A stretch of DNA of 64,000 bases from the IMG/VR virus record IMGVR_UViG_3300040959_000745, positions 1-64,000 of that record; one strand, given 5' to 3'. Both the position numbers and the translations under genes were made by a program. Positions within the stretch are counted from its first letter, which is position 1. Every line of letters begins with the position of its first letter. Shown here in pieces: positions 1,745-37,697 of this stretch. Under the pieces are notes generated by a model, which saw nothing but the letters and a program-made list of their open reading frames with translations, was not told the DNA's origin and searched no databases. The DNA comes from a virus.

Positions 1745-2663
1745 AACTATTTACACAGCCTATGTCCCACATGGTATAAACGAAAATGCTTTTAGGCCTA
1801 TCGTAGAAGGGGACAAAGATTACGAAGATTTTATTAAGTTTAAGAATGAGTTCCTTTCTAAACATGATTTGAACTTTATTGTATTCTGGAATAATAGGAA
1901 CATAAGAAGAAAGCAGCCTGGAGACGTTATCTTATCTTTCAGGCACTTTACAAACACTCTGAGTGAGGAACAGGCAAAGCATGTCGGTCTGTTTATGCAC
2001 ACTCAGGTCTCTGATGAGAATGGAACTAATTTAAAAGCAGTTAAAGAAGCAGTCTGCCCTGACTGTAATATTATTTTTTCTGATGCAAAGATTTCCTCTA
2101 AAGAGTTAAACTTTTTTTATAACCTATCAGATGTTACTTTAAATATAGCATCGAATGAAGGGTTCGGTTTAAGTGGGGCTGAGTCTATTATGGCAGGGAC
2201 TCCTATCATAAATAATGTTACAGGAGGACTACAAGACCAGTGTAGGTTTGAGGACAGTGAAGGTAACTGGATAAACTTTGATTCTACTATAACTTCTAAT
2301 CATACAGGACACTATACAAATCACGGGACTTGGGTAAAGCCTGTGTACCCTAGCAACAGATCTTTGCAAGGTTCTGTACCTACTCCTTATATATTTGATG
2401 ATAGATGTAAGTTTGAGGATGTGTCAAAAGCTATAGGGTATTGGTATTATATAAAACCTGAAAAAAGAAAACAGCTAGGCCTTGAAGGAAGAAAGTGGGC
2501 GGTAAGTGAAGAATCTGGTATGTCATCTAAAGAGATGTGTAATAGATTTGTAAAACATATTAATTTTTTATTAGAGAACTGGACTCCTACTGAGAACTTT
2601 ACGGTTACTAAGGTAGATAAATTTGAGAGTTCTTTTTCAGAAAATATAGGTATAACTTGGTAA
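1734..2663 (+). CDS. GT-B glycosyltransferase, C-terminal nucleotide-sugar-binding domain (split gene)
   Basis: This 309-residue ORF begins with TAYVPHGINENAFRPI, the interdomain segment of family-4-type GT-B enzymes, and carries the donor-binding motif NEGFGLSGAESIMAGTP (E-x7-E type). It lacks an N-terminal domain of its own. In its frame a TAG stop directly precedes the ATG, so it cannot start further upstream. It continues the preceding ORF with an 11-nt overlap and most likely works with it as one enzyme. Confidence 0.85.
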   Translation: MNNRTIYTAYVPHGINENAFRPIVEGDKDYEDFIKFKNEFLSKHDLNFIVFWNNRNIRRKQPGDVILSFRHFTNTLSEEQAKHVGLFMHTQVSDENGTNLKAVKEAVCPDCNIIFSDAKISSKELNFFYNLSDVTLNIASNEGFGLSGAESIMAGTPIINNVTGGLQDQCRFEDSEGNWINFDSTITSNHTGHYTNHGTWVKPVYPSNRSLQGSVPTPYIFDDRCKFEDVSKAIGYWYYIKPEKRKQLGLEGRKWAVSEESGMSSKEMCNRFVKHINFLLENWTPTENFTVTKVDKFESSFSENIGITW

Positions 2664-2665
2664 AT

Positions 2666-3937
2666 ATGAGTAAGAGAGTTTTATTGTACGCACCTGTTAA
2701 GACAAGGTCTGGTTACGGAGACCACGCTAGAGACATTGCAAGATGTATTATATCCTATTCAGATTATGATTTAGAAATATTTCCTACTAATTGGGGAAAT
2801 ACTTCTTGGAATGGTTTAGACACTACTACTGAAGTTGGTAGAGCTATTGAGTCTCGTATTACTAAAAGACCTACACCCAATCCTGATATCTTTATACAAT
2901 TGACTATACCTAATGAGTTTTCTAGATTAGGTAAGTATAATATAGGTATGACAGCTGGTATAGAGACTGATCTATGTAAGCCAGAATGGATTGAGGGAGC
3001 TAATAATATGGATATGCTTATAGGAGTCAGTGAACACTCTGTATCTGTTTTAAAGAACTCGAAATACGATAAACAAGATAAGACTACTAATCAGATAATA
3101 GGGTCAGTAGCCTTAAAAGAAAGTCTTAGAACGGAAGTTCTTTTTGAAGGTATAGACACTGATATATTTAAAAAGACTTCTAAAATAGACCAGGAAGTAA
3201 AAGATAAGCTATCTTCTATAAAAGAAGATTTTTGTTTTTTATTCGTAGGACATTGGTTAGAAGGGGATTTAGGCCAAGATAGAAAAGATGTCGGGATGCT
3301 AGTAAAAACTTTCTGTGAAGCTTTTAAAAATAAACCTTCTAGAACAAGACCTGCTCTTATATTAAAAACTAGCGGATCTGGATTCTCAGTTAGCGATAGG
3401 TACGAAATAAATAAAAAAATACAAGCTATAAGAGATACTGTAGATAACTGTCCGTCTGTGTATCTGATTCATGGACAGTTATCAGACCAACAAATGAATG
3501 GTTTGTATAACCATCATAAAGTAAAAGCGATGGTTAGTTTTACTAAAGGTGAAGGATTTGGTAGACCTTTATTGGAGTTTACAGCTACTGGTAAGCCTGT
3601 TATTGCTTCTGGATGGTCAGGACAAATGGATTTCTTAGACAGTAATATGTCCTACTTACTTCCAGGAGATTTAACTCAAGTACACAAGTCTGTAGTCAAT
3701 AAGTGGTTTATGCAAGAGGCACGATGGTTTACTGTTAACTATGCCTATGCTATTAAAATATTACAGTCTATAGAAAAGAATTACTCTGAGGTTTTAAAGA
3801 GGTCTGAAGAACAGAGAAAGCACACGCTATCTAACTTTACTTTTGATAAAATGTCAAGTAAACTGCATCATATACTTGACAGTATTCCTGTTACTAAAGA
3901 AGTTCCTTTAACACTTCCTAAATTAAAAAAGATATAA
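2666..3937 (+). CDS. GT-B (family 4-like) glycosyltransferase
   Basis: A full-length GT-B protein of about 423 residues, with an N-terminal SGYGDHARD loop (SGxG acceptor motif) and a C-terminal donor site FTKGEGFGRPLLEFTATGKP. I place the start at the ATG two bases after the upstream stop; a TTG nine bases earlier is in frame but less likely. It abuts the next gene directly, so it belongs to the same operon as the other sugar genes. The sugar and acceptor cannot be told from sequence. Confidence 0.9.
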   Translation: MSKRVLLYAPVKTRSGYGDHARDIARCIISYSDYDLEIFPTNWGNTSWNGLDTTTEVGRAIESRITKRPTPNPDIFIQLTIPNEFSRLGKYNIGMTAGIETDLCKPEWIEGANNMDMLIGVSEHSVSVLKNSKYDKQDKTTNQIIGSVALKESLRTEVLFEGIDTDIFKKTSKIDQEVKDKLSSIKEDFCFLFVGHWLEGDLGQDRKDVGMLVKTFCEAFKNKPSRTRPALILKTSGSGFSVSDRYEINKKIQAIRDTVDNCPSVYLIHGQLSDQQMNGLYNHHKVKAMVSFTKGEGFGRPLLEFTATGKPVIASGWSGQMDFLDSNMSYLLPGDLTQVHKSVVNKWFMQEARWFTVNYAYAIKILQSIEKNYSEVLKRSEEQRKHTLSNFTFDKMSSKLHHILDSIPVTKEVPLTLPKLKKI

Positions 3938-4414
3938 ATGGAAAATAGATTTACTTTTGATGAAATATCTCCTATAACTAATAATTTATGTGTTCTAGTA
4001 GATAAGGATTCGTCTACTGGATTATGGTCAAAACTATGTACAGAGTCTGGTTATACTACTAACTCTTTTTTAGTAGAAGGCTCAAAGACTTTAGAAGAGT
4101 TAAAGGAAAAGATACCTAAGTTTGTGTACGAATTAATCAAATATGATAAAGGGTATGCCTGGGTATTATCTATGAACTCTACTAGTAAGGCTAGTATGTT
4201 CCCTATATTAGACACGAACACTTCAGATTATAAATGGCAAGTAGTTCCTTTTAAGATGCTTAATGAGGAGGAGTCTAAAAACTATCCTAATCCAGATAAG
4301 CCAGGAGAGTTTTACAATACTGTAGTCGATTTTGAGAATGCTTCTACTTTTGATAAAGATAAGTTTCTGGAAGCTTTTGATCAGTTTATGTTAATATCTA
4401 AAGAAGATGAGTAG
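3938..4414 (+). CDS. hypothetical protein in glycosyltransferase operon
   Basis: A 158-residue acidic soluble protein I do not recognise. No signal peptide, membrane segment or clear motif is visible. It starts immediately after the preceding stop and overlaps the next start by 8 nt, so it is translated with the glycosyltransferases and may assist them. Confidence 0.75.
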   Translation: MENRFTFDEISPITNNLCVLVDKDSSTGLWSKLCTESGYTTNSFLVEGSKTLEELKEKIPKFVYELIKYDKGYAWVLSMNSTSKASMFPILDTNTSDYKWQVVPFKMLNEEESKNYPNPDKPGEFYNTVVDFENASTFDKDKFLEAFDQFMLISKEDE

Positions 4415-5171
4415 TACTATAAGTTTCCTAGTTACAGTTTGTGACGAGTTTAGGGAGTTAGATCGACTACTAAAGCAGCTTTCTACTGGAAAAAGTGCGG
4501 GAGATGAAATAGTAGTAGTCTACGATTCTAATAAAGTAACAGACGATGTAAAAGAAATTCTTGTTAATTTTGATAATAAGATAGATAAGTATTCCTATCT
4601 TCCTTTTGACTTTAAAGGAAACTTTTCAGATTATAAGAACTTCGGAAATAGTTTATGTAAGAATGATTGGATATTCCAAATAGATGCAGACGAGTACCTG
4701 TCCTTACACTTATATACTAATCTTCACAATATTATAAATGTAAATGAGCCTTCTAATATAGATCTTATAGCTATACCTAGAGTTAATATAGTTAAAGGTA
4801 TAACACAAAAGCATATAGACTCTTGGGGATGGTTTATAGGTAGAGACGAGAACTACGCAGACTCAGATGAGTACGATACTTCTTCAGAGTCTTATAAGTT
4901 TCTTAAGGATAACGGCTTTATAATATCTGAGCATAATCACGCTGATAATATTAATGTAGTTAGGTATTACTGTCCTATAATAAACTATCCTGACTATCAG
5001 ACTAGACTTTACAAGAATAAAGAAGGGATAAAATGGGATGGCAAACTTCATGAAAGAGTTGTAGGCTCTAACAACTTTGCCAGAATACCTGTAGATAATG
5101 ATTTAGATATACTTCACTTTAAAGATATAGATAGACAAGAAAGGCAGAATAATTACTATAATACATTATAA
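4407..5171 (+). CDS. GT-A (family 2) glycosyltransferase
   Basis: The protein (254 residues) opens with SFLVTVCDEFRELDRLLKQL, the nucleotide-sugar-binding strand and helix of family 2 enzymes, and has the metal-binding D-x-D as QIDADEYL. The C-terminal half contains a typical acceptor-side KWDGKLHERVVG segment seen in waaE/TPR-type glycosyltransferases. It overlaps its neighbour by 8 nt in the same operon. Confidence 0.88.
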   Translation: MSSTISFLVTVCDEFRELDRLLKQLSTGKSAGDEIVVVYDSNKVTDDVKEILVNFDNKIDKYSYLPFDFKGNFSDYKNFGNSLCKNDWIFQIDADEYLSLHLYTNLHNIINVNEPSNIDLIAIPRVNIVKGITQKHIDSWGWFIGRDENYADSDEYDTSSESYKFLKDNGFIISEHNHADNINVVRYYCPIINYPDYQTRLYKNKEGIKWDGKLHERVVGSNNFARIPVDNDLDILHFKDIDRQERQNNYYNTL

Positions 5172-5172
5172 T

Positions 5173-6030
5173 ATGGTTTTTTGGAGAACTTTTGGTAATG
5201 CTTTACATCCTATTAAACATGTGGATAAGTTAGGATTTTCTATAAAAGATCCATTTTATATACCAAATTTTTATTTAGAAGAGCAGTATTTTATTGTATT
5301 AAGGACCTGTATGGGAGTTGGGGATTGGGGCATTATTTCTGCAATGCCTAGAAAGCTCAAAGAAAAATATCCTAATTGTAAAGTTTTTATTCCTAATAAG
5401 GATCTTCTTTCTCATCTATTTGTACACTTAAAAGATAATTGGGATTCTTGGGATAACCCTTTTAACGTATCTGAAGTAGTCTTTAAGAATAATCCATACG
5501 TTGACGACTTTATAGATTACTTTTCTGAAGAGGTATTTAATGACCATTATAGAATTTATACTGAAGAAGAGGAGCCTTTACTAAAGCAGATTCTTAGGTT
5601 CTGGCAGTTTCGAGAAGATGAGATGCAAGATTTAGATCCAGAGATTTACTGGACAGACGAAGAAAAAAGTTTGGGGGATGCTATAATAAACCAACACACT
5701 GGAACTAATGACTTCTTTACAGTATTAATATCTAATAGGTATAAGGAAGAGGAGCTGCCTATAATACAAAATAAGATAAATGAGTTAAACACATTTAACT
5801 ATCCTGCTTATTACTGGTTTTCTAATCCTAATATTAATTTAAACTTTAAAAAAGCTTTAGATTTAAGGCATGTGGATATAAGAGTACAGATGTATATAAA
5901 GTCTAAAGCTAAGTTTAACATAGGAAATCAAACAGGAGTACACGATACTATAGCACGTTACGCTCCTACCTATACTATTCCTAGAGGTGATCTAGGTTCC
6001 AATATTATAAATTCTCAAATATATTTTTAA
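5173..6030 (+). CDS. GT-B, family 9 (heptosyltransferase)-like protein
   Basis: This 285-residue protein contains GVGDWGIISAMPRKLKEKYP, matching the G-x-G-D-x-x-x-x-x-P-R-x-L-x-x-x-x-P signature of ADP-heptose:LPS transferase-like proteins, and a C-terminal NIGNQTGVHDTIAR motif where that family binds the donor. The C-terminal domain looks short. It ends on the first base of the next gene's ATG. Confidence 0.7.
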   Translation: MVFWRTFGNALHPIKHVDKLGFSIKDPFYIPNFYLEEQYFIVLRTCMGVGDWGIISAMPRKLKEKYPNCKVFIPNKDLLSHLFVHLKDNWDSWDNPFNVSEVVFKNNPYVDDFIDYFSEEVFNDHYRIYTEEEEPLLKQILRFWQFREDEMQDLDPEIYWTDEEKSLGDAIINQHTGTNDFFTVLISNRYKEEELPIIQNKINELNTFNYPAYYWFSNPNINLNFKKALDLRHVDIRVQMYIKSKAKFNIGNQTGVHDTIARYAPTYTIPRGDLGSNIINSQIYF

Positions 6031-6614
6031 TGTACAATCCTAAAACTATCTTGGATACTATTCCAGATAAATTTGATTCAAAGACGACTACTTCTAAGAG
6101 ATTTAAGACAGACTTGTATAACTTTATAGTGAAGAATGGTGTCAAAAGCATATTAGAGATAGGATCTTCAGTAGGGCATACAGCTTATTTTTTAGGTCAC
6201 TTTGTAGATACGTTTTCTTGTGTGGAGCTTGATAGGTCTAGAGTTGATAGAATAAATAAGTTATGTGAAAACTTAGATAGTGTCGTATGTTATAGAAAAG
6301 ATGTTTATAGAGATGCTTGGGGTTTTAAGTATCATGATATGATTATAATAGACTGTGTTCATTATTATAAGCATGTTAAAAGTGATATAGAGAATGCTCT
6401 TAAACTTAAGCCTATCTACTTAGTTTTTGACGATTATGGTTTAATACCAGAAGTTAAAAGAGCAGTAGATGAGTATGTTGACAGATCTATTTTACAGGTA
6501 GAGTTAAAAGTAGGTCATCCTATGTCTACGGAGTTCTATATGTGTAAGTCAGAAAATATTACTAAAGATAAAAGGTTAGCAGACTCTGAGGGTATAATAT
6601 GTAAAGTATTATGA
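6030..6614 (+). CDS. class I SAM-dependent methyltransferase
   Basis: A 194-residue protein with motif I ILEIGSSVGHTAYFLG, an acidic end of strand 2 (CVELDRSRVDR) and motif IV-like IIIDCVHYYKH followed by LVFDDYG, as in the methyltransferase-24 type. Its place among sugar genes suggests methylation of a glycan or of a sugar precursor (inference). Confidence 0.85.
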   Translation: MYNPKTILDTIPDKFDSKTTTSKRFKTDLYNFIVKNGVKSILEIGSSVGHTAYFLGHFVDTFSCVELDRSRVDRINKLCENLDSVVCYRKDVYRDAWGFKYHDMIIIDCVHYYKHVKSDIENALKLKPIYLVFDDYGLIPEVKRAVDEYVDRSILQVELKVGHPMSTEFYMCKSENITKDKRLADSEGIICKVL

Positions 6615-7315
6615 AAGTAGCTATATATACGTCCATATTCGGAAATTACGACAATTTAATAGAAGATCAATTACAGTTAGATGGCGTTGATTATATTTGT
6701 TTTACTGATGCTGATATTAAATCAAGAACTTGGAGAGTAGTCAAATCTTTGCCTATATATAATGATGCTAATAGGAATGCAAAAAAGTATAAGGTACTTC
6801 CTCATAGGTACTTAAAAGACTATCAGTATAGTATATGGATAGACGGTAACATAAAAGTTGTCGGAGATGTAAGAGAACTGATAGATGATTCTTTACATAA
6901 AGTCTTCGATCATAATCAAACTATCCTAGATGCTAGAAACTGTTTATACGAGGAAGCTAACGCTATACTACAGAAAGGGCAAGAGAATATGAGAATAACT
7001 CCTCATAGAGGTAAGTTAAACTATAAAGATAATCCTAAATTAATAACACAACAAGTATCCAGGTACTTAAAAGAAGGGTATCCTAGCAATAACGGTCTTG
7101 CTACTAATCCTATAATATTAAGGCGGCATAAAGAAAAGGAGGTGGTTGATGTTATGGAAAGTTGGTGGGAAGAAATAAAGTACAATTCTAAGAGAGATCA
7201 GTTAAGTTTTGATTATATATGTTGGAAGAAGAATTTTAAGTATTCTTTATTATTAGGAGATTCTAGAGATAATGAATTTTTTAAATCTATGGGTAAACAT
7301 ACAGGTAAAAAGTAA
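6611..7315 (+). CDS. DUF616/TOD1-MUCI70-type glycosyltransferase-like protein
   Basis: The sequence KVAIYTSIFGNYDNL near the N-terminus, the segment NRNAKKYKVLPHRYL and SIWIDGNIKV are characteristic of the DUF616 (TOD1/MUCI70) family, a GT-A-like fold with WxDG as the metal site. It is 234 residues and overlaps the preceding gene by 4 nt (ATGA). Confidence 0.85.
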   Translation: MKVAIYTSIFGNYDNLIEDQLQLDGVDYICFTDADIKSRTWRVVKSLPIYNDANRNAKKYKVLPHRYLKDYQYSIWIDGNIKVVGDVRELIDDSLHKVFDHNQTILDARNCLYEEANAILQKGQENMRITPHRGKLNYKDNPKLITQQVSRYLKEGYPSNNGLATNPIILRRHKEKEVVDVMESWWEEIKYNSKRDQLSFDYICWKKNFKYSLLLGDSRDNEFFKSMGKHTGKK

Positions 7316-7318
7316 ACA

Positions 7319-7924
7319 ATGAAGATATACGAATACAAAGATTACGATCACTATAGAGATTCTCAAATAGAAGCAAATAAGAAAAAGATAAAAAATTCTT
7401 ATGTAGATAAGAACTCTATAAAATATTTAATAGATTATTATAGTAATAGGTTTGGTAGGAGAGCTAATAAGATTCTTTGTCATGGTACAAGGAGAGGTTT
7501 AGAGCAGGAATACTTTAAGAAGTTTTTAGGTAAAGATATAGATATACTTGGTACAGAGATAAGCGACAATGCTAAAGATTACCCCAACACTATTCAATGG
7601 GATTTCCATAAGTCACAAGAATCTTGGCGTTCCTATTATGACATAGTATATTCTAATTCTTTTGACCATTCTTATAAACCAGCAGAATGTTTAGATGAGT
7701 GGATGTCTTGTATCAATTCTGAAGGTATTTGTATTATAGAGTATAGTCCAATATGTGATACAATTCTCAATAAGGTAGATTGTTTTTCTGGATCTTTACA
7801 GGATTACAAAGAACTTATAGGAACTAAATATAATTTTGACATACTTACTAATGATGGCATCAAAGATGACGGATTAACTTGGAGAGGTCTTAGGTATTTT
7901 TTTATAATCACAAATAAGTTATGA
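7319..7924 (+). CDS. methyltransferase-like protein
   Basis: A 201-residue protein with a degenerate SAM-binding region (KILCHGTRRGLEQEYFKK), a strand-2 acidic residue (GTEISDNAKDYP) and the DIVYSNSFDHSYKPAECLDEW segment that resembles type-11 methyltransferases. The glycine-rich loop is replaced by GTRRG, so activity is uncertain. Overlaps the next start by 4 nt. Confidence 0.65.
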   Translation: MKIYEYKDYDHYRDSQIEANKKKIKNSYVDKNSIKYLIDYYSNRFGRRANKILCHGTRRGLEQEYFKKFLGKDIDILGTEISDNAKDYPNTIQWDFHKSQESWRSYYDIVYSNSFDHSYKPAECLDEWMSCINSEGICIIEYSPICDTILNKVDCFSGSLQDYKELIGTKYNFDILTNDGIKDDGLTWRGLRYFFIITNKL

Positions 7925-8685
7925 GTAAAAATATAATATTTATACCAGCTATTGATGCGGGGAGAAATAGACATAATGCTTATAAGTATAGCATACAGTC
8001 ATGGAAAAATTGGGCAGATAAGAATAATTCTGAAGTTATTGTGTGGGAAAATGCTTTATATCCTTGGAGCGAAATGACTATACCTTGGCAGAGATATTAT
8101 CTATTTGATATGCTTGAGAATAATAAAATAGATTATGATCAAGTTCTGATGGTAGACTCTGATACTATAGTACACCCAGATACGCCTAACTTTTTTGAAT
8201 ATACAACAGATTATAGTGCAGTTATGGATTGTGGATGTTGGGAATGGACAGGTAGAAGTATAAGGCATTATGCCAATTTATTTGATAATTTTAAGTTGGA
8301 AAGAGGTTATTATTTTAATGGAGGATTTCAAATAGTAAATGAATCTAATAAGGAGTTCTTTAAACTTGTTTTAGAATTTTATAAGACCAATAAGAGTATC
8401 TTACTAGAAAAACAGAAAGCTGGATTGGGTACTGATCAAACTTGCGTTAACTATTTAACGCAGATGTCTGGGGTTAAAGTTGAAATTCTTCCAGCTACTT
8501 TTAATTTGCATAGTCTATCCTTAAAGAATCTAATAAATTTAGGTCAACCCTGGCCTGCTGATAGTTTAGAGAATCTTTATGAGCAAGGATGGGTATATCA
8601 CTTTAACTCTATACCTAAAAACTCTTTAAATAGGAATACTGATTATTTTTTGGAAAGAGCATATAGAGAGCTTTGGTCTAAATAA
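7921..8685 (+). CDS. GT-A glycosyltransferase (galactosyl/GT8-GT34-like)
   Basis: The protein has a GT-A start (NIIFIPAIDAGRNRH), a clear metal-binding D-x-D in VLMVDSDTIVHP, a FNGGFQIVN segment and a late TDQT motif, a pattern typical of retaining GT-A enzymes that extend glycans. It is 254 residues, soluble, and in the same operon as its neighbours. Confidence 0.85.
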   Translation: MSKNIIFIPAIDAGRNRHNAYKYSIQSWKNWADKNNSEVIVWENALYPWSEMTIPWQRYYLFDMLENNKIDYDQVLMVDSDTIVHPDTPNFFEYTTDYSAVMDCGCWEWTGRSIRHYANLFDNFKLERGYYFNGGFQIVNESNKEFFKLVLEFYKTNKSILLEKQKAGLGTDQTCVNYLTQMSGVKVEILPATFNLHSLSLKNLINLGQPWPADSLENLYEQGWVYHFNSIPKNSLNRNTDYFLERAYRELWSK

Positions 8686-8696
8686 AATTTACAAAT

Positions 8697-9674
8697 ATGA
8701 GAATAGCATGGTTTTCTGAAGCAGGGTTTAACAGTTCTAATACACCAAGGGACTTTCCTAATATGCGTACAGAGTATGCTTGGTATGTTGCTCAAAATGC
8801 ACACCATTATAATATAGCTACTTTACCAGAACTTAAAGACAATAGTTTTGATTTAGGTATTATAATCATACCAAAAAAACTAGCTGCTTATGCTAATATT
8901 GATATTATCGGGAATCTAAGGAGAACTTGTAAAAAGTATGCCTTTATGCAAGAAGGTGCTTCTTGGTATTTCCAAGAATTACACATAGGAGAAACTTTTC
9001 TTTACTATGACATTATGGTAAATGCAGATTTCTTTTTAGCACATAACATAAAAGATTTAATGTATTATCAGTCTCTCTTGGAGAAAAAAGGATACATTAA
9101 CCCTACCCTAATGATAGAGGATTCTATAAAAGACATATCTAATGTAGAAAGGGAGGGGGTTATTATAGGAGGTAATATCGGACATTACTATGGAGGATTC
9201 AATTCTTTAGTTGTAGGTTTGCATATTGCGGATAAAGTGTATGCTCCTCAAATGGGTAGGATGAAGCCTGAAGAACGTAGTATAACTCAAATAGAGCATC
9301 TTCCTTACACGGAATGGGTTGAGTGGGTACATAACCTTAATAAGTTTAAATATGCCGTTCATATGAACCCTAACACTATTGCAGGAACTTTTAATCTTAA
9401 CTGTGCTTATTTAGGAATACCTTGTATTGGGAATATAGATGCTGATACTCAAAGAATGTGTTTTCCTGAACTTTCGATGGATGCAGAAGATATTATAGGT
9501 GCTAAGATGCTTTTAGAAAAGTTGCGAGATGACAAAGATTTCTATCAAGAAATATCTGAAACTGCTAAAGATAATTACAAGAGATATTTTTCGGAAGAAG
9601 CGTACAAAGTAAATTGGAATAATATTTTAAAACAACAATTCGATTATGAAGATTTCCCTAATACAGCCAAGTAG
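8697..9674 (+). CDS. GT-B-like glycosyltransferase
   Basis: A 325-residue protein with an N-terminal Rossmann-type half and a C-terminal segment (MNPNTIAGTFNLNCAYLG, then a D-x-Q region and a terminal helix) resembling the nucleotide-binding half of GT-B enzymes. The family cannot be named. Its last 29 nt overlap the start of the next gene. Confidence 0.65.
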   Translation: MRIAWFSEAGFNSSNTPRDFPNMRTEYAWYVAQNAHHYNIATLPELKDNSFDLGIIIIPKKLAAYANIDIIGNLRRTCKKYAFMQEGASWYFQELHIGETFLYYDIMVNADFFLAHNIKDLMYYQSLLEKKGYINPTLMIEDSIKDISNVEREGVIIGGNIGHYYGGFNSLVVGLHIADKVYAPQMGRMKPEERSITQIEHLPYTEWVEWVHNLNKFKYAVHMNPNTIAGTFNLNCAYLGIPCIGNIDADTQRMCFPELSMDAEDIIGAKMLLEKLRDDKDFYQEISETAKDNYKRYFSEEAYKVNWNNILKQQFDYEDFPNTAK

Positions 9675-10854
9675 GAATAATTTAAAATATTTAAAGTGGT
9701 CTTATAATGCTATAAGAAAGAACCAAGGCAAACATGATGTTCAGATTTGTGTGGCAGATGATGCATCTACAGATGGAACTTGGGAGTGGTGTATGCAAAT
9801 AATGCACACAGACTCTAACTTCAATGCGATACGAAACGAAGGACCTAAGAGATTAGGACATACTATTTTGTATGATAAATTGATCAAAGAGGTAGCAATT
9901 CACGATATTTGTATGATATATCACGCAGACATGTACCTTGCTCCAGGTGCATTAGATGCAATAGAAAGTTATATTAAAGAAAAAACTATTGTTTCCTTAA
10001 CAAGAGTAGAGCCTCCTTTACACCCAGATGGGCCAGAAAAGGTTCTTGTTGATTTTGGAACAGAACCTGAAGACTTCAATGAAAATATGTTTCTAGATTG
10101 GCTGTCTAATAAGTATACTCCTAAATCTGACAAAGGTTTTACCTTTGGAGTTTTTGCTCCTTGGGCATTTTACAAGAAAGATTTTTTAGAGATTGGAGGT
10201 CATGATCCATTATATGCTCCACAGTCCAAAGAAGATTCAGATATCTTTAATAGATTTAAACTTAATAATGTAAAATTTATACAGACTTGGAGAGGAGTCG
10301 TATACCACATGACTTGTAGAGGTTCTAGATTTAATCCTACTATAACACAGGTAGGTACAGCTTCTGATGAATGGATGAGGCAGAATATAAAGAGTTCAAG
10401 AAACTTTATTAGAAAGTGGGGACATTTTGTAAAGCATGATGAATATATGATGCCTATTGTTCCTTCTAAATATATGGTAGTTATAAAACTTATTAACTGT
10501 ACAAGTATAAAATTACTATCTGCTTTAGAACCTTGGTGTTCAAAAATATTTACAGATTTCTCTGACTGGGAATCTTATGTTAAATCTGAACAAATTAATA
10601 CTTCTTTTGATATGTCTAAAAGAGTATATCCTATAAATAGTATGATTCCTCAATCTGTAAAAGGACTTTTTCTTACAGTAGATGCTCATAATTTTTCTGA
10701 TGAAGATTTTTTAGGCATACAAGAACTTTCTATGATAATTGATAATGCTAAAAAAGATTCTAATGATTTAGAAGGACAGATTTTTTCTTTAGGTAATATT
10801 AAAGTATATGTAAATGATTTAACTACTTATGAAAATTTATTAATAAAACTATAG
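9646..10854 (+). CDS. GT-A (family 2) glycosyltransferase with C-terminal extension
   Basis: Residues 1-240 form a family 2 domain: SLIQPSRNNLKYL, CVADDASTDGT (UDP site), YHADMYL as the D-x-D equivalent and ESD-type KEDSDIFNRF. Residues from about 250 to 402 are an extra domain of unknown role. This is the last sugar gene of the operon. The start lies within the preceding coding sequence, as the PSRNN strand requires it. Confidence 0.88.
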   Translation: MKISLIQPSRNNLKYLKWSYNAIRKNQGKHDVQICVADDASTDGTWEWCMQIMHTDSNFNAIRNEGPKRLGHTILYDKLIKEVAIHDICMIYHADMYLAPGALDAIESYIKEKTIVSLTRVEPPLHPDGPEKVLVDFGTEPEDFNENMFLDWLSNKYTPKSDKGFTFGVFAPWAFYKKDFLEIGGHDPLYAPQSKEDSDIFNRFKLNNVKFIQTWRGVVYHMTCRGSRFNPTITQVGTASDEWMRQNIKSSRNFIRKWGHFVKHDEYMMPIVPSKYMVVIKLINCTSIKLLSALEPWCSKIFTDFSDWESYVKSEQINTSFDMSKRVYPINSMIPQSVKGLFLTVDAHNFSDEDFLGIQELSMIIDNAKKDSNDLEGQIFSLGNIKVYVNDLTTYENLLIKL

Positions 10855-11346
10855 ATGGGCTACGTAACTAAGTATAAAAAGGTAGAAAATAGATTTAAGC
10901 AAGATGTATTATCTTATTTTAAAGATAAATGTAACATTACAGAGGCTACTGAGTATGAAGATATATACGGCCATTGGGATTTAGAAGTGACTGATTCTGA
11001 TTCTTTTATAGGTAAAGTAGATGTAAAGGCATTAAAAAAGAGGCGGAGAAGCGACCCTTCAGTAGATGATTCTATACATTGGGTAGAACTTCAAAATGTA
11101 AATGGAGATGCTGGTTGGTTGTTTGGTCTTGCAGATAATATAGCTTTTGAAACTTTAACAGAGTGGCTTATTGTCAGCAGGACTGCTTTGATTGATTCAT
11201 TAAAATCTAGTATTTTTAAGGAGTTTGTTGACACTCCAGAGATATATAGAATGTATAGAAGAAAAGGTAGAAATGATGTTATTGTTCTTGTTCCTACAAA
11301 AGATCTAAAGATATTAAGTAACTTAGAGATTCCTAAAATTAACTAG
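10855..11346 (+). CDS. putative restriction-fold nuclease-like protein
   Basis: A basic, 163-residue protein that starts directly after the preceding stop. The segment IYGHWDLEV...GKVDVKALKK reads like the D...(D/E)-x-K core of a PD-(D/E)XK fold. No second diagnostic motif is obvious, so the nuclease call is tentative. Related small phage proteins are usually left uncharacterised. Confidence 0.5.
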   Translation: MGYVTKYKKVENRFKQDVLSYFKDKCNITEATEYEDIYGHWDLEVTDSDSFIGKVDVKALKKRRRSDPSVDDSIHWVELQNVNGDAGWLFGLADNIAFETLTEWLIVSRTALIDSLKSSIFKEFVDTPEIYRMYRRKGRNDVIVLVPTKDLKILSNLEIPKIN

Positions 11347-23176: not shown

Positions 23177-23407
23177 ATGTTATATTCAATATACGCAAGT
23201 CTTTGCGGTAAAGTGTATCTAGAGGAGTATACGGACCACGTTAAAGCGTACTCCAGATACTCGCAGTTATCTTATAAATTAGAAAAACTATCAAAAAATA
23301 AGTTAGAGATTAGTGATCTCTCTCACGAACTTTCTGAGAATTTAGACAAGCACTGTACGTCTTCTTTAGGTTTTGTTCACTGTGAGAAATTTGAGGGAGA
23401 TTTATGA
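23177..23407 (+). CDS. hypothetical protein
   Basis: 76 residues, no recognised motif, overlapping the phosphoesterase start by 4 nt. Confidence 0.55.
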   Translation: MLYSIYASLCGKVYLEEYTDHVKAYSRYSQLSYKLEKLSKNKLEISDLSHELSENLDKHCTSSLGFVHCEKFEGDL

Positions 23408-24120
23408 AAACAGTAGTTCTTGGAGATATACACGGTTTAGGTGTATGGGAGTTAATAGTAGCTAAAGAATCTCCTGATAGAGTTATTTTCTTAGGGGACT
23501 ATTTCGACTCTACAGAAGTAAGTACTTCTCAGCAAATAAATAACTACAATAAAATAGTAGAGTTTAAAAAAAGTGGCGGAGCAGACATAATAATGCTAGT
23601 AGGAAATCACGACTTTCATTATCTTCCTTACATAGACACAGACGATATAAGTGGTTTTCAGAGTCACAGTGAAGATGTGTTAAAGGAACTTGTAGGAAGT
23701 ACTTTAAACAATCTTACAATGTGCTATAAACAAGGTAACTACTTATTCACACATGCAGGAGTTTCAGATAATTTCTTACTAAAAGCACAAATAAATTATA
23801 GTAGAGACACAATAGATTCTTCTATTAATACTTTATTTTTGAGTAATCCTCATATATTTGATTTTGATGAAGATTGTGAAGATGCTTCTGGAGATAATAA
23901 GGAGCAGTCCTGTATATGGATACGTCCTAGAAGTCTTATGAATAATTCTCATACTATAAAAAAAGACTATATTCAAATTGTAGGGCATACTACACAAAAG
24001 AGAGTAGATGTAAAAGGAGTAGCTACAGATGGGAGGTTCTATTTTTTAGATACTTTAAGAACTTCTGGACAGTACGGTATTATTGAGTTTAACAATATTA
24101 CTTTTAACTCGTATAAATAA
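23404..24120 (+). CDS. calcineurin-like metallophosphoesterase
   Basis: All metal motifs are present: GDIHG (Asp8, His10), GDYFDS (Asp32), GNHD (68-70), a later THAGV and VGHT near the C-terminus. 238 residues. A clear paralog lies at about 37 kb with the same motif spacing; the two bracket the CRISPR and accessory region. The substrate (protein phosphate, nucleotide or RNA end) is unknown. Confidence 0.9.
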   Translation: MKTVVLGDIHGLGVWELIVAKESPDRVIFLGDYFDSTEVSTSQQINNYNKIVEFKKSGGADIIMLVGNHDFHYLPYIDTDDISGFQSHSEDVLKELVGSTLNNLTMCYKQGNYLFTHAGVSDNFLLKAQINYSRDTIDSSINTLFLSNPHIFDFDEDCEDASGDNKEQSCIWIRPRSLMNNSHTIKKDYIQIVGHTTQKRVDVKGVATDGRFYFLDTLRTSGQYGIIEFNNITFNSYK

Positions 24121-24126
24121 TAGGTT

Positions 24127-25413
24127 ATGAACTACTATAAGATAAAAAGAAAACAAGTAAAGCGTGATGCTGAAGAATCTTATTACTACGGCACTTCTAT
24201 AGTATATAGGATGTATCCTAATAAGAAGCAGGAGGAGTGGTTAACTGAGATAGGCAACAAATGTCGGGGAGCTTATAACAAACTGGTAGAAGAGTTCTGC
24301 CAAAATCCAGATAAACCCAGGAACTTACCTGGAACTTCTTTAAAGGAGATTAATAGGCTTAGACATTATTTAAAAGAGTTTGACTGGTTAGATGATGTTC
24401 CTTCTATATTTTTGTATAATGTTTGTAATAATTTTATTAAAGGAGTTGATAACTTTTATACTCAAATTAAAAAGAATAAAAAGATATTAGAGAAAGATCC
24501 TTATGCTACAGTTAGAAAAACAAGTCCCCCTAAAAAGAAAAAGTCTTATAGAGACCTGCATTTTGGGTCTAATAACTCAACTATAGAAAGAAGCACTGCT
24601 ATTGACTATGACAACAATAGATATTATTGTTTTACGAAAACATTAAAAAGATTAGGTATTAGTGATTCTTTTAAGATAAAATGTCACAAGAAGTTTTATA
24701 ATAGCAAAATAAAAAGAGTTTCTTTTATGAGGGACAGTTCTATGTGTTGGTATGTGTCTTTTGGTTTGGAGCTTCCGCAAATAGATAGGTATGATAAAAT
24801 TTATGTACCTAAAGATAATAGTTTAGGTATAGACTTGGGTGTAAAAACCGCAGCTACTACTTCTGATGGGGTAAAATTTCACCCTCCAGTAGAGCAGATA
24901 AAAAAGTTGGAGAAGAAGATAGATGTTTTAAATAAAGTTATTAGCAGGAAACAAAGATTAGATAAAAAGAATTACTGGAAGAGTAATAACTATAGTAGGG
25001 TGTTGGAGAAGAAGTACAGAATACAGAAAAAGATAAATAACATAAGAGCTAATTATAACGAGTATGTATCTCATGTTCTTACCAAAGGAGAGTATAATAA
25101 GATTCAGATGGAAGATCTTAAGTTAAATTTTATGGTAGAAAAAAGGAAGAAGAAGTTTGGTATGAGTAGATCGGCAACTCGTTTAGGTTTGGGAAGTTTA
25201 ACTAATAAGATAAAATCTAAATCTCAGGTAAGAGGTATAGAGTTTAATAAAATAAATCCTGCAAACACAACTAAGTATTGTAGTAATTGTGGACATATAG
25301 AGAACAGTTTAACTCTTAATACAAGAGAGTGGACGTGTCCTAGATGTGGTGTTGACCACGATAGAGATATAAATGCTGCAAAAAATATTCAAAAAAGTTT
25401 GGATATTAGATAA
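24127..25413 (+). CDS. compact TnpB/Cas12f-like RuvC nuclease, candidate type V effector
   Basis: 428 residues of the IS605 OrfB/Cas12f type: an N-terminal wedge segment YRMYPNKKQEEWLTEIG-x-x-CRGAYN, RuvC-I GIDLGVKTAATTSDG with Asp236, RuvC-II IQMEDLKLN with Glu329, a zinc finger CSNCG...CPRCG (Cys385/388/404/407) and RuvC-III DRDINAAKNI with Asp414. All three catalytic acids and four Cys are intact. No TnpA gene or transposon ends are visible. Directly downstream lie a structured RNA with an anti-repeat and a CRISPR array, the order seen in type V-F loci (effector, tracrRNA, array), and the length matches the smallest Cas12f proteins. Whether it should be called Cas12f or a TnpB that acquired an array needs a phylogeny. 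Confidence 0.88.
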   Translation: MNYYKIKRKQVKRDAEESYYYGTSIVYRMYPNKKQEEWLTEIGNKCRGAYNKLVEEFCQNPDKPRNLPGTSLKEINRLRHYLKEFDWLDDVPSIFLYNVCNNFIKGVDNFYTQIKKNKKILEKDPYATVRKTSPPKKKKSYRDLHFGSNNSTIERSTAIDYDNNRYYCFTKTLKRLGISDSFKIKCHKKFYNSKIKRVSFMRDSSMCWYVSFGLELPQIDRYDKIYVPKDNSLGIDLGVKTAATTSDGVKFHPPVEQIKKLEKKIDVLNKVISRKQRLDKKNYWKSNNYSRVLEKKYRIQKKINNIRANYNEYVSHVLTKGEYNKIQMEDLKLNFMVEKRKKKFGMSRSATRLGLGSLTNKIKSKSQVRGIEFNKINPANTTKYCSNCGHIENSLTLNTREWTCPRCGVDHDRDINAAKNIQKSLDIR

Positions 25414-25653
25414 AAGGTTTGTAGATTTACGATCTAAGTAAGTTCATTGAAATAATCGCCCGTGTGTAGCGGGTTTAAAGGCTTGCAGATATAGCGTCAA
25501 CCCCTTCTTTGCTACGCAAGTGGTAAAGTCGCTCAAAATCTTTCTTTAAAATGAAAGCGAGAGGCCGAGAGGACGCTAGGCGGCTAATGTCGAAAGACAT
25601 AACGTGTGAGAACACACGAAATATCTTTTAAATTGTAGCCTTTGTATAGTTAG
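25414..25653 (+). ncRNA. putative tracrRNA with anti-repeat
   Basis: The 240 nt between effector and array have no ORF but several hairpins: CCCG/CGGG (25459-25462 with 25470-25473), CTTGC/GCAAG (25482-25486 with 25516-25520), ATGTC-GAAA-GACAT (25587-25600) and CGTGTG-AGAA-CACACG (25603-25618). Immediately after the last hairpin, 25619-25638 is complementary to the repeat segment ending GGTATTT: 19 of 20 positions pair, two of them G-U. Hairpins plus anti-repeat are what a tracrRNA of a Cas12f-type system needs. Ends of the RNA are not determined. Confidence 0.8.
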
Positions 25654-26324
25654 GGTGTATACCACCACAATTTGAAAGGTGTTTACAACTAATGTTAGAC
25701 AAAAAAATAAGTATAGCTTGGTATATAGCACCACAGTTTGAAAGGTATTTACAACGGAAACTTAGGTTACCTACTATCTGCTGAAGGTGTATACCACCAC
25801 AGTTTGAAAGGTATTTACAACGAAAACTTAGGTTACCTACTATCTGCTGAAGGTGTATACCACCACATTTTGAAAGGTATTTACAACCAAATGAAGAACG
25901 ATGCACAATAAGATGTAGGTGTATAGCACCACAATTTGAAAGGTGTTTACAACAGATCTAAAAGAAGAAGCAGAAAAACTTTCAGTGTATACCACCACAA
26001 TTTGAAAGGTATTTACAACTAGTACCTATAGTATCAAAGTTAAATCAGAGGTGTATACCACCACAGTTTGAAAGGTATTTACAACTTATGTTATGAAGGT
26101 AGTACTCCTTATATTGGTGTATACCACCACAATTTGAAAGGTATTTACAAACGGTGTCTCTTTAGCATCATAATTTTAAAACTGTTTACAACATAGCGAC
26201 ATCAATGTCGTTACCATAGATGGCTGTATACCACCACAATTTTAAAACTGTTTACAACATAGCGACATCAATGTCGTTACCATAGATGGCTGTATACCAC
26301 CACAATTTTAAAACTGTTTACAAC
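25654..26324 (+). CRISPR. CRISPR array, 11 repeats of 36 nt, 30-nt spacers
   Basis: Repeats start at 25654, 25720, 25786, 25852, 25918, 25984, 26050, 26116, 26157, 26223 and 26289. Core features are GGTGTATACCACCAC, then CA(A/G)TTTGAAAGG, ending ATTTACAAC. Full spacers are all 30 nt, so the period is 66. Spacers 2 and 3 differ by one base; the last two are identical. Between repeats 8 and 9 only 5 nt remain, and repeats 9-11 have drifted (AATTTTAAAACTG version). The array runs in the same direction as the effector, and the drifted end is distal. No cas1/cas2 genes are in the window. Confidence 0.93.
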
Positions 26325-29108: not shown

Positions 29109-29651
29109 ATGAAAGATTCGAGAAAGCTTTTAGCAACCATTGCAAAGGGATATTTGAGTGAAGAATTAAATCATAATATAGATGGGATAATAGCATATCA
29201 TAGAAGCCCCAAAAAATTTTATGATTTTAAATTGTCAAATGTTAGTTCTGACAGTAATAGACAGAGATATGGGTGGGGGTTATATTTTTCAAACAGTATT
29301 CCAAATACGCAATATGGTGATTATTTATATCAAGTAAGTCTTTTTAAAAATAAGAAACAGTATGTTTTAATTGATTTAAAACAACCAGTTGAAGGACTTA
29401 TAGTTAATAGGATTGTAGAAGCACTTAATCATTATAACAAAAAATCTGATGAAGTTGTTGAGTTTGCTTATAATGGATTTTTGTTTTATAAAACGTTATC
29501 AAGAATTTTAGGTGGTGATAAAAACGCATCTTTGTTTTTATCTAAAAATGGTATAGATGGGTTACTAAATAAAATAACTAAAAATTGGCACGATTATATA
29601 TTATTCAATGACGATAATATAATAATTGATGAGATTAAATATGACCCATAA
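29109..29651 (+). CDS. ADP-ribosyltransferase-like protein with leader peptide
   Basis: 180 residues. The leader MKDSRKLLATIAKGYLSE ends in L-S-E. The body has AYHRSPKKFYDFKLS (Tyr30-His31) and YGWGLYFSN (54-62), matching the YHGS/T...G-x-GLYFT motifs of ART domains found in phage polyvalent proteins. The classical third acidic motif is not clear. Two siblings with almost the same leader lie downstream. By analogy with T4 Alt it may be carried in the head and modify host proteins (inference). Confidence 0.7.
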   Translation: MKDSRKLLATIAKGYLSEELNHNIDGIIAYHRSPKKFYDFKLSNVSSDSNRQRYGWGLYFSNSIPNTQYGDYLYQVSLFKNKKQYVLIDLKQPVEGLIVNRIVEALNHYNKKSDEVVEFAYNGFLFYKTLSRILGGDKNASLFLSKNGIDGLLNKITKNWHDYILFNDDNIIIDEIKYDP

Positions 29652-29779: not shown

Positions 29780-30274
29780 ATGAAAGATTCGAGAAAGCTT
29801 TTAGTAACCATTGCAAGAGGGTATTTAAATGAAAATATTGAAGATTATTCAAAATGGAAACGTAAAAATGTAACTTTGCGTGGAATGAAAGAATTAGGTA
29901 AAGCAAATGAAGTATATGGTTCTTTTGGAAAAGGATTATATACAGTACCTTTAAGTAATAAAGCAATGGCAAAACAATATGGTAAAATATATTTTGTTGT
30001 AAATGGGATACCAAGAAAACCAAAAATTGTTGATTCATTAAATAATGCTGAATTGTTAAGACAAAAATTAATTAATGATTTTTGTAAAAAACATAACGAA
30101 GATTATAGTCCTCGTTTTTTTGAATCAAATACAACTATGGAAGATGAAATGTTAAAGTTGGGTTATGATGGTCTTATAATAAAAGGTAGAGAGATGGTTA
30201 ACTACACCCCAAAGGATATTAAATATTTTAAAAATGAAAATGATTTACAACGTTACTATGAAGCACTTTCATAG
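29780..30274 (+). CDS. ADP-ribosyltransferase-like protein with leader peptide
   Basis: 164 residues. The leader MKDSRKLLVTIARGYLNE ends in L-N-E and is nearly identical, also in DNA, to that of the ART-like gene 670 bp upstream, while the rest differs. The body has LRGMKELG (Arg34), GSFGKGLYTVPLSN (47-60) and LGYDGLIIKGREMVNYTP, as in R-S-E-type ART domains of polyvalent proteins. Confidence 0.72.
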   Translation: MKDSRKLLVTIARGYLNENIEDYSKWKRKNVTLRGMKELGKANEVYGSFGKGLYTVPLSNKAMAKQYGKIYFVVNGIPRKPKIVDSLNNAELLRQKLINDFCKKHNEDYSPRFFESNTTMEDEMLKLGYDGLIIKGREMVNYTPKDIKYFKNENDLQRYYEALS

Positions 30275-36117: not shown

Positions 36118-36822
36118 ATGAAAGACTTAAGAAAATTCTTATCTACAACTGCGAAACAGTATTTGAATGAACAAGCATCATTAGAAAATGTGAAACTAAA
36201 TGATAATTTTTGGGAATGGTTTGGTAATAGTAAAGTTGTTGATAAAGATGGGAATCCAATGATTTGTTATCATGGAACACCAAAAGGTGGTTTTACTGAA
36301 TTTAAACCAAAAACTGGTTATAAAGGTAAATCAAAACAACAAGTTGATTTAGGTTCGCATTTTTCAATTGATAAAGAATATGCTTCAGGATATGCTGGTG
36401 ATAAAAAAACATCAAAAGTTTATGAATCATTTTTGAGAATAGAAAATCCGTTATATACTAATCAAATGTTTTATAGAGAGGATAATGAAAAATTATTTCT
36501 CAATTATTTGAATTTTATAACCAAAACATTCAAATTAAAATTAGGTGGTGATTACTACTATAACAAAAATGGAGATAAGCAAAATGAACCACAAAATATT
36601 ATGCTCAATAGTTTTTTGATTGATAAAATACCATCAAATAAACTTTATAATAGTTTAATAGAATTTGGTTTTGATGGTGTTTTTCACGAACCATATAATA
36701 GGGAGGGGTTGAGTCATTTTAAAAAACATCCATTGGCATACATAATTATAGAACCGAACCAAGTTAAATCAATTGATAATGATGGTAGTTGGGATGTAAA
36801 TGATAATAATATTTATTCTTAA
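36118..36822 (+). CDS. ADP-ribosyltransferase (polyvalent-protein type) with leader peptide
   Basis: 234 residues. The leader MKDLRKFLSTTAKQYLNE (ends L-N-E) is followed by FWEWFGNSKVVDKDGNP and YHGTPKGGFTEF (51-62), LGSHFSIDKEYASGYA (78-93), a SFLRIENPLY strand and LIEFGFDGVF, then a C-terminal NQVKSIDNDGSWD. This is the full pattern of ART domains described in phage polyvalent proteins. Probably an ADP-ribosylating effector. Confidence 0.82.
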   Translation: MKDLRKFLSTTAKQYLNEQASLENVKLNDNFWEWFGNSKVVDKDGNPMICYHGTPKGGFTEFKPKTGYKGKSKQQVDLGSHFSIDKEYASGYAGDKKTSKVYESFLRIENPLYTNQMFYREDNEKLFLNYLNFITKTFKLKLGGDYYYNKNGDKQNEPQNIMLNSFLIDKIPSNKLYNSLIEFGFDGVFHEPYNREGLSHFKKHPLAYIIIEPNQVKSIDNDGSWDVNDNNIYS

Positions 36823-36953
36823 TTTTGTGTGGTGGAGAAAAAGTAAAACAAAAAGATTATAATCACGAAACTTAATACGAAGCACAAACGTAGCATTGCA
36901 TATAACTAATCGCTATCCGCATATTTATGGTGGATATACAACAAAAACAAATT

Positions 36954-37697
36954 ATGAAAACAGTTATATTAGGAGACATCCACGGAACAAATTATTGGCA
37001 AACTATAATAAACTTCGAGAAACCTGATAGAGTTGTGTTCGTAGGAGATTATTTTGATTCTTTTGATATTCCTTACGATAAGCAGATAGATAACTTCCTG
37101 GACCTCATAGAGTACAAGGAAAAAAGTGGGGGAGAAGTCATACTACTAATAGGTAACCACGACTATCATTATCTACCCTATATAAACGACACATATACAT
37201 CAGGCTATCAATCTAAATATGCTCATTTAATAAAACAAGTAGTAGAAACTAACTTACACCATCTACAGATAGCCTATCAGTTTGATGACTTTCTAATAAC
37301 ACATGCAGGAGTAAGTGAAGAGTTTATGGATAATAACTTTGATAAGTGGTCTGAGGAAACTATAGTAGAACATCTTAATGATTTATTTAAATATAAACCT
37401 AATAAGTTTTTATTTAATGGTCTTGACCCTTATGGAGACGATACTTACCAGTCTCCTATATGGATAAGACCTAAAAGTCTTATGAGAGCAAACAAGACAT
37501 CAGAACTAAAGAGAAGGTATGTTCAAGTAGTAGGGCATACTCAAGTAAAGGAAATTGATACGAAGGGAGGTGCTACGGGAGGAAGGTATTATTTTATCGA
37601 CTGCTTATCTACGAGTGGGCAGTATATGATCGTAGATGAAGATTCGTTTATAAATTTTAAAAGTTATAAAGATTATGATAAAGAAGATACTGAGTAA
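36954..37697 (+). CDS. calcineurin-like metallophosphoesterase (paralog)
   Basis: 247 residues from this ATG, chosen because it aligns with the start of the paralog near 23.4 kb (MKTV-LGDIHG). Motifs GDIHG, GDYFDSFD, GNHDYHYLPY, THAGV and VGHTQ are intact. The extended similarity shows gene duplication or acquisition from a relative. Confidence 0.9.
   Translation: MKTVILGDIHGTNYWQTIINFEKPDRVVFVGDYFDSFDIPYDKQIDNFLDLIEYKEKSGGEVILLIGNHDYHYLPYINDTYTSGYQSKYAHLIKQVVETNLHHLQIAYQFDDFLITHAGVSEEFMDNNFDKWSEETIVEHLNDLFKYKPNKFLFNGLDPYGDDTYQSPIWIRPKSLMRANKTSELKRRYVQVVGHTQVKEIDTKGGATGGRYYFIDCLSTSGQYMIVDEDSFINFKSYKDYDKEDTE

What the first reader, a model, noticed from the sequence alone, without database searches (positions are those of the whole stretch)
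24127..26324. Minimal phage-encoded type V CRISPR locus: 428-residue TnpB/Cas12f-like nuclease, structured RNA, 11-repeat array
The effector has intact RuvC acids (D236, E329, D414) and a zinc finger, and is followed in the same direction by a hairpin-rich RNA region and a true array (36-nt repeats, 30-nt spacers). The order effector-tracrRNA-array is that of type V-F, but there are no cas1/cas2/cas4 genes nearby and the protein is at the lower size limit. It could be a phage weapon against competing phages or host elements, or an intermediate between TnpB with its omega RNA and Cas12.
Basis: partly seen in the sequence, partly recalled or inferred. Interest (0 to 1): 0.95.

Follow-up and report, generated by a model that had tools for sequence, protein, structure and literature searches.

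The report
Phage TnpB-like nuclease with CRISPR array
A large virus of (probably) Bacteroidota bacteria carries one small TnpB-type cutting enzyme, a folded helper RNA and a short CRISPR array, and a second, distantly related virus keeps the same set with a matching RNA fold, so it is most likely a working minimal CRISPR system built from a transposon enzyme; about 50 such events are already inferred, so it is a new example of a known kind.

Summary
A 428-aa TnpB-type nuclease with intact RuvC residues (24127-25413) is followed on the same strand by a ~240-nt structured region (25414-25653) and an array of 11 repeats (36 nt, 66-nt period; 25654-26324). It lies in a T4-like phage of at least ~154 kb, probably infecting Bacteroidota. 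A second phage lineage (IMG/VR 3300035438_000894, L012) has a 46%-identical effector in the same order. Across 28 scaffold and repeat:anti-repeat pairs compared, 14 carry compensatory changes and none is broken. The anti-repeat (25619-25636) pairs with the repeat over 18 bp (0 of 1000 shuffles). No cas1, no TnpA, one TnpB per phage. HMM score and fold put the effector nearer TnpB (TM 0.74) than Cas12f (0.61), so it is not V-F by descent but an unclassified V-U-like unit that works like V-F. Best explanation: a tracrRNA + crRNA-guided DNA nuclease aimed at competing elements, with a fixed, partly decaying array. Targets are only hinted at. About 50 TnpB-to-type V transitions, and phage TnpBs beside arrays, are already published, so this is a new variant of a known kind. 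Main rival: the array serves a host type VI-B system, whose repeats it resembles (from memory, untested).

The parts
24127..25413 (+). TnpB/Cas12-type RNA-guided nuclease, 428 aa; RuvC D236/E329/D414, TNB zinc ribbon C385-C407, about 20-aa N-terminal extension
25414..25653 (+). Structured scaffold RNA, tracrRNA-like (5' end not determined)
   Evidence: z -2.3 alone, -3.2 with repeat 1; conserved with L012
25459..25473 (+). Scaffold hairpin A, CCCGU-GUGUA-GCGGG
   Evidence: 2 compensatory pairs against L012:5256-5270, loop conserved
25492..25578 (+). Scaffold stem B, arms TAGCGTC (25492-25498) and GACGCTA (25572-25578), next to the conserved TGCAGATATA and TAGGCGGCTA motifs
   Evidence: 2 compensatory pairs; motifs visible
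25587..25600 (+). Scaffold hairpin D, ATGTC-GAAA-GACAT
   Evidence: 4 compensatory pairs; 2 of the 3 pairs counted by tool
25603..25618 (+). Scaffold hairpin E, CGTGTG-AGAA-CACACG
   Evidence: 4 of 6 pairs compensatory, AGAA loop conserved
25619..25636 (+). Anti-repeat AAATATCTTTTAAATTGT, 18 bp with repeat positions 14-31
   Evidence: 0 of 1000 shuffles as good; 2 compensatory pairs against L012:5390-5396
25654..26324 (+). CRISPR array: 11 repeats of 36 nt (consensus GGTGTATACCACCACAATTTGAAAGGTATTTACAAC), 30-nt spacers
26116..26324 (+). Degenerate 3' part of the array: spacer 8 reduced to about 5 nt, half-degenerate repeat at 26157, two identical spacers, altered repeat core

Best explanation
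A phage-borne, minimal, class 2 type V-like (V-U-type) RNA-guided DNA nuclease, derived from a TnpB. The scaffold RNA (25414-25653) acts as tracrRNA: its anti-repeat pairs with the 3' half of each repeat in the array transcript. The duplex is trimmed, probably by host RNase III or by the effector. The effector then carries a tracrRNA:crRNA pair whose 30-nt spacer guides RuvC cutting of DNA next to a T-rich motif. Because repeat 1 follows the anti-repeat directly, scaffold + repeat 1 + spacer 1 can also fold as one omegaRNA-like single guide. The array is not extended by the phage, in which no Cas1 was found; it is a fixed guide set, duplicated and decaying at its 3' end. The likely use is against competing phages or other mobile elements in the same bacterium. 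Shown: the architecture, intact catalytic residues, TnpB-type fold, anti-repeat, covarying scaffold, and conservation of the whole set in a second phage lineage. Inferred: expression, processing, DNA cutting, PAM and target class.
For: Same order and spacing in two phage lineages whose effectors share 46% identity and form a 100%-supported pair on a long branch. 14 of 28 scaffold and R:AR pairs change on both sides, none is broken; on the subset counted by tool, 6 of 9, with 11 of 500 shuffles as high and slid controls at 0-1. The anti-repeat helix beats all 1000 shuffles. In L012 it sits at the same place, directly after hairpin E, and covaries. The scaffold core model finds only these two loci among 99 sources. 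In L012 the 5' half of repeat 1 has decayed while its AAAGGTAGTCACAAC 3' half is intact, as expected if only the 3' half is used. A Bacteroidota-type promoter motif (TTTG-N20-TATCTTTG) sits at the end of the L012 effector gene, just before the scaffold. Catalytic residues are intact. Similar effector + array sets with 36-nt GTTG...ACAAC repeats occur in two more phages, L121 and L082.
Against: No RNA or activity data. The covariation rests on two sequences and helices chosen partly by eye. L012's anti-repeat core is only 7 bp and not significant alone. No spacer turnover: arrays are identical in two and in four assemblies. No convincing protospacer: W5 matches Bacteroides phage DAC16 at 27 of 30 nt but with E 0.1; W9/W10 has a 23-nt exact match, but in an intergenic palindrome of a 45% GC contig. 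Array duplications and truncation could mean disuse.
Confidence: 0.74

Rival explanations
1. The array is a captured or mimicked host array of type VI-B (Cas13b) whose crRNAs load into host Cas13b (inter-phage competition or decoy). The anti-repeat is the leader:first-repeat hairpin known from VI-B arrays, and the neighbouring TnpB works separately.
For: The repeats resemble Cas13b repeats as I remember them (36 nt, GTTG...TTTGAAGGGTATTCACAAC, 30-nt spacers); the L012 repeat would match one of them at 29 of 36. VI-B leaders form a hairpin with repeat 1 (PMC13187072). Viral mini-arrays usually carry host repeats (PMC11656645). A Flavobacteriia plasmid carries one lone similar repeat, 30 of 35 to the L012 repeat, E 0.2.
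Against: Four covarying scaffold helices upstream of the anti-repeat are not explained by a leader hairpin. The effector-scaffold-array set is kept together in two lineages. In L012 the 5' half of repeat 1, which a Cas13b repeat hairpin would need, has decayed. No Cas13 hit among the large ORFs scanned in G001 and G003, although a host gene would not be seen there. The VI-B resemblance was not tested against real loci.
Confidence: 0.13
2. An ordinary TnpB with its own omegaRNA, domesticated or left by a lost transposon, beside an unrelated, decaying array.
For: HMM score and fold are TnpB-like; the array is degenerate at its 3' end.
Against: The anti-repeat matches the array repeat and covaries with it. 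The linkage recurs in L012, L121 and L082. No Y1 transposase; single copy per genome. The scaffold runs into the array instead of ending in the TTCA-type end seen in typical relatives.
Confidence: 0.07
3. A regulator or other non-cutting use: the RNA-guided effector binds host or phage DNA to block transcription, like V-M or TnpB-like repressors.
For: Decaying array and lack of turnover fit a fixed guide set.
Against: RuvC triad fully intact; no spacer match in its own genome.
Confidence: 0.06

Closest known systems
Phage TnpB genes beside CRISPR arrays (landfill phages, PMC12607003; hypercompact phage type V systems cited there)
   Same: Phage-encoded 401/433-aa TnpBs with RuvC motifs next to arrays
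   Different: No scaffold, anti-repeat or covariation is described in the passages read; sequence identity to this locus could not be checked
Type V-U variants / about 50 independent TnpB-to-type V events (PMC12669027; Altae-Tran 2023 not held)
   Same: TnpB joined to a CRISPR array
   Different: Whether this lineage is among the about 50 could not be checked (data files not held)
TranC transposon-CRISPR intermediates (LaTranC, PDB 9jfo/9jfq; Jin et al., Cell 2025, title seen)
   Same: TnpB-derived effector with a guide split into tracr-like and crRNA parts (the TranC mechanism is from memory)
   Different: LaTranC is larger (478-575 residues in the PDB chains) and only a distant match (79.7 bits; TM 0.62)
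Type V-F (Cas12f)
   Same: Order effector, tracrRNA, array; similar size; R:AR duplex
   Different: Below the Cas12f2 curated cut-off; fold closer to TnpB than to Cas12f
ISFba1 and ISDra2 TnpB (PDB 8iaz, 8h1j)
   Same: Best fold matches (TM 0.74 and 0.67), same RuvC and zinc ribbon
   Different: Here no Y1 TnpA; an array instead of a single transposon-end guide

Membership tests
TnpB RNA-guided nuclease family | Score above the curated cut-off of the guided_TnpB model | tested here: met
   194.5 bits against cut-off 100; L012 185 bits
TnpB RNA-guided nuclease family | Intact RuvC D/E/D triad and zinc ribbon | tested here: met
   Invariant in 42 relatives
Mobile IS200/IS605 or IS607 element | Y1 TnpA transposase and multiple copies | tested here: not met
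   No Y1_Tnp in six phage records; one TnpB per phage record. Serine TnpA of IS607 not tested
Mobile IS200/IS605 or IS607 element | OmegaRNA ending at a transposon right end | tested here: not met
   Scaffold runs into an array; typical relatives end in TTCA-type ends
CRISPR-Cas type V | RuvC effector genetically linked to a CRISPR array | tested here: met
   conserved in L012
CRISPR-Cas type V | tracrRNA with anti-repeat (where a tracr is used) | tested here: met
   18 bp, 0 of 1000 shuffles; covariation with L012. Expression of the RNA not tested
CRISPR-Cas type V | crRNA-guided interference | not testable with these tools
   Needs expression and cleavage or interference assays
CRISPR-Cas type V | Adaptation genes (optional in V-U and V-F) | tested here: not met
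   No Cas1 in six phage records; cas2 and cas4 not searched
Subtype V-F (Cas12f) | Effector falls in Cas12f by curated model or fold | tested here: not met
   Cas12f2 45.8 bits against cut-off 450; TM 0.61 with AsCas12f against 0.74 with TnpB; most PADLOC Cas12f models do not separate it from ordinary TnpBs. No Cas12f in the tree
Subtype V-F (Cas12f) | Works as an asymmetric homodimer | not tested
   No multimer prediction available
TranC intermediate | Uses both crRNA and its own reRNA | not testable with these tools
   The fold of scaffold + repeat 1 as one hairpin is compatible
Subtype VI-B array | Repeats match Cas13b repeats; Cas13b in genome | tested here: inconclusive
   Only a remembered resemblance; no Cas13 hit among large ORFs scanned in G001 and G003; no Bacteroidota genomes reachable

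The most novel reading that the evidence does not exclude
A TnpB lineage in Bacteroidota phages did not build its repeats out of its own omegaRNA end but recruited ready-made CRISPR repeats of the host (VI-B-like, 36 nt, GTTG...ACAAC), replacing the transposon-end part of its guide RNA. Its scaffold then coevolved with the borrowed repeat. This would be a recruitment route to type V, alongside RNA splitting.
Probability: 0.22. Interest if true: 0.8.

Novelty: new variant of a known kind. Interest (0 to 1): 0.55.

Why it matters
It is a small set (effector gene, scaffold, array in about 2.2 kb) in which the step from a transposon nuclease to a CRISPR effector can be compared across lineages: two phages share a covarying tracr-like RNA, and two more (L121, L082) show similar repeats beside other TnpB-like effectors, one with an omegaRNA-like scaffold running straight into the array. 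If active, it is a 428-aa nuclease and a natural case of viruses using CRISPR against rivals. It also asks a testable question: did TnpBs make their own repeats or borrow those of host CRISPR systems?

Tried and rejected
Repeat-pattern hit in 3300031994_000023 (L162): chance match inside a coding gene. PADLOC Cas12f/Cas12u4 hits: most are matched or exceeded by ordinary phage TnpBs, so not used as evidence for V-F. Rfam: only spurious hits, far below gathering scores. Independent origins of the array-bearing TnpBs: the tree scatters them, but the AU test does not reject one clade of W, L012, L082 and L121 (p 0.52), so not claimed. Self-targeting: no spacer match in G000, G001 or G003 beyond short chance matches. 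Spacer searches of phages and plasmids: nothing significant. W9/W10 23-nt match: a palindrome, so its chance value is uncertain. Close relatives of the L121 and L082 effectors to look for spacer turnover: none in IMG/VR. Comparison with real Cas13b repeats: no Bacteroidota genome could be reached, and the remembered sequences were not found in papers except part of the PspCas13b repeat. Scaffold core in other TnpB loci: not found.

Full report
Observation. The finding is really there at the coordinates given. The ORF 24127-25413 encodes 428 aa and matches Pfam OrfB_IS605 and Cas12f1-like_TNB and NCBIfam guided_TnpB at 194.5 bits (cut-off 100), against 64 for C2c8 and 46 for Cas12f2, both far below their cut-offs. 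RuvC residues D236, E329 and D414 and four zinc cysteines are invariant among 42 relatives. Downstream lie eleven 36-nt repeats at a 66-nt period. The array is not pristine: two spacers are duplicated, one is cut to about 5 nt and the last three repeats have drifted.

Setting. The window is part of an 85,550-b virus record. A second assembly, G001, overlaps it by 33.5 kb at 99.997% and extends it to at least ~154 kb. The terminase is 56% identical to that of Microcystis phage Mel-JY01 and 50% to those of Flavobacterium phages. In the relative L012, the promoter motif TTTG-N20-TATCTTTG, typical of Bacteroidota (from my knowledge), precedes the scaffold. The host is therefore probably a member of Bacteroidota. 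There is one TnpB per phage record, no Y1 transposase and no Cas1.

A second lineage. A viral search with an alignment of relatives found L012 (3300035438_000894), whose effector is 46% identical over its full length and is followed by the same layout. Three further contigs carry essentially the same L012 region with identical arrays. All other relatives lie at about 30% identity. The pair is a 100%-supported clade on a long stem.

The RNA. The stretch 25414-25653 folds better than shuffles. Compared with L012, hairpins A, D and E, stem B and the anti-repeat are kept: of 28 pairs, 14 have changed on both sides, one on one side and none is broken; mixing arms from the two phages leaves 36 of 56 paired. 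On the 3' part, counted by tool, 6 of 9 pairs change on both sides, 11 of 500 shuffles reach this, and slid structures give 0-1. The anti-repeat AAATATCTTTTAAATTGT pairs with the repeat over 18 bp (0 of 1000 shuffles). In L012 the core GACTATC at the same place, right after hairpin E, pairs with GGTAGTC; two of the seven pairs are compensatory. A caution: these are two sequences with helices chosen partly by eye, although A, D and E are predicted independently in both. L012's scaffold as a whole does not fold better than shuffles (z -0.7 to -1.0). A covariance model of the 3' scaffold finds only these two loci among 99 sources.

The protein. AlphaFold (mean pLDDT 85.9) and Foldseek give ISFba1 TnpB first (TM 0.74), then ISDra2 TnpB 0.67, a viral Fanzor2 0.65, LaTranC 0.62 and AsCas12f 0.61. 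So the chain is a TnpB-type effector. The PADLOC 'Cas12f' hits are not diagnostic, because most are matched or exceeded by ordinary phage TnpBs.

Mechanism. The anatomy says how it should work: scaffold as tracrRNA, 3' half of the repeat as crRNA handle, 30-nt spacer as guide, RuvC as cutter. That the 5' half of L012's first repeat has decayed while the 3' half is intact fits this. With no Cas1 and identical arrays in separate assemblies, the array looks like a fixed guide set. Use against competing elements is the usual role of viral arrays (PMC11656645) and is inferred here. Spacer evidence is weak: one 27-of-30 match to Bacteroides phage DAC16 (E 0.1) and one 23-nt exact match in a palindrome, both with T-rich 5' flanks.

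Main rival. The repeats look like type VI-B (Cas13b) repeats as I remember them, also 36 nt with 30-nt spacers, and VI-B leaders form a hairpin with the first repeat (PMC13187072). A Flavobacteriia plasmid carries a lone repeat of this kind. I could not reach Bacteroidota genomes to test this. The covarying scaffold upstream of the anti-repeat and the conserved linkage speak for use by the TnpB-like effector.

More of the kind. Among 152 loci examined, two further phages have TnpB-like effectors followed by 36-nt GTTG...ACAAC arrays: L121 (531 aa, seven repeats) and L082 (380 aa, whose scaffold ends AAAGTAATTACAAC + guide and then continues as an array). The data do not reject a single clade of all four (p 0.52).

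Novelty. About 50 independent TnpB-to-type V events are already inferred, with more expected (PMC12669027), and phage TnpBs beside arrays have been reported (PMC12607003). This is therefore a new variant of a known kind. What is added is a two-lineage conserved, covarying tracr-like RNA and the question where the repeats came from.

Noticed in passing
L121:4203-6460 (IMG/VR 3300003877_000001, 325,854 b): 531-aa TnpB-family protein followed by ~220 nt with an ACCTTACAAA anti-repeat and seven 36-nt repeats (GTTGGTTATTATCATATTTTGTAAGGTGATCACAAC), mostly 30-nt spacers.
   Followed up: partly
L082:3977-5540 (IMG/VR 3300050139_000044): 380-aa IS200-type TnpB whose omegaRNA-like scaffold ends ...AAAGTAATTACAAC plus a 30-nt guide and runs directly into 36-nt repeats: looks like an omegaRNA extended into an array.
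   Followed up: partly
L067:4850-5470 (IMG/VR 3300010276_000129): TnpB followed by a scaffold and then an array of a different repeat type (GTTTACATTCAACTATAGTTGGTACTAAAG).
   Followed up: no
L191:650-685 (Empedobacter stercoris plasmid pES183-2): A lone CRISPR-like repeat, GTTGGGAAGTACCACAATTTGAAAGCAAGTCACAAT, 30 of 35 to the L012 repeat, between a RepL gene and a MobV relaxase gene; possibly a single repeat unit acting on a host CRISPR system.
   Followed up: partly
L012:3893-3946 and 6260-6313: 54-nt direct repeats (87% alike) flank the effector-array locus in the L012 phage; intergenic elements or remnants of an insertion.
   Followed up: no
window 36118-36822 and 61909-63006; possibly 29109-29651, 29780-30274, 60849-61907: 36118-36822 is an ADP-ribosyltransferase of the ART-PolyVal family; 61909-63006 matches the same PHROG weakly. 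Similar-looking neighbouring ORFs gave no Pfam hit where tested.
   Followed up: partly
window 1734-11000: Several glycosyltransferase-like genes and one GtrB-like match, perhaps for surface or DNA modification.
   Followed up: no
window 23404-24120 and 36927-37697: Two calcineurin-like phosphoesterases, one directly upstream of the effector.
   Followed up: no
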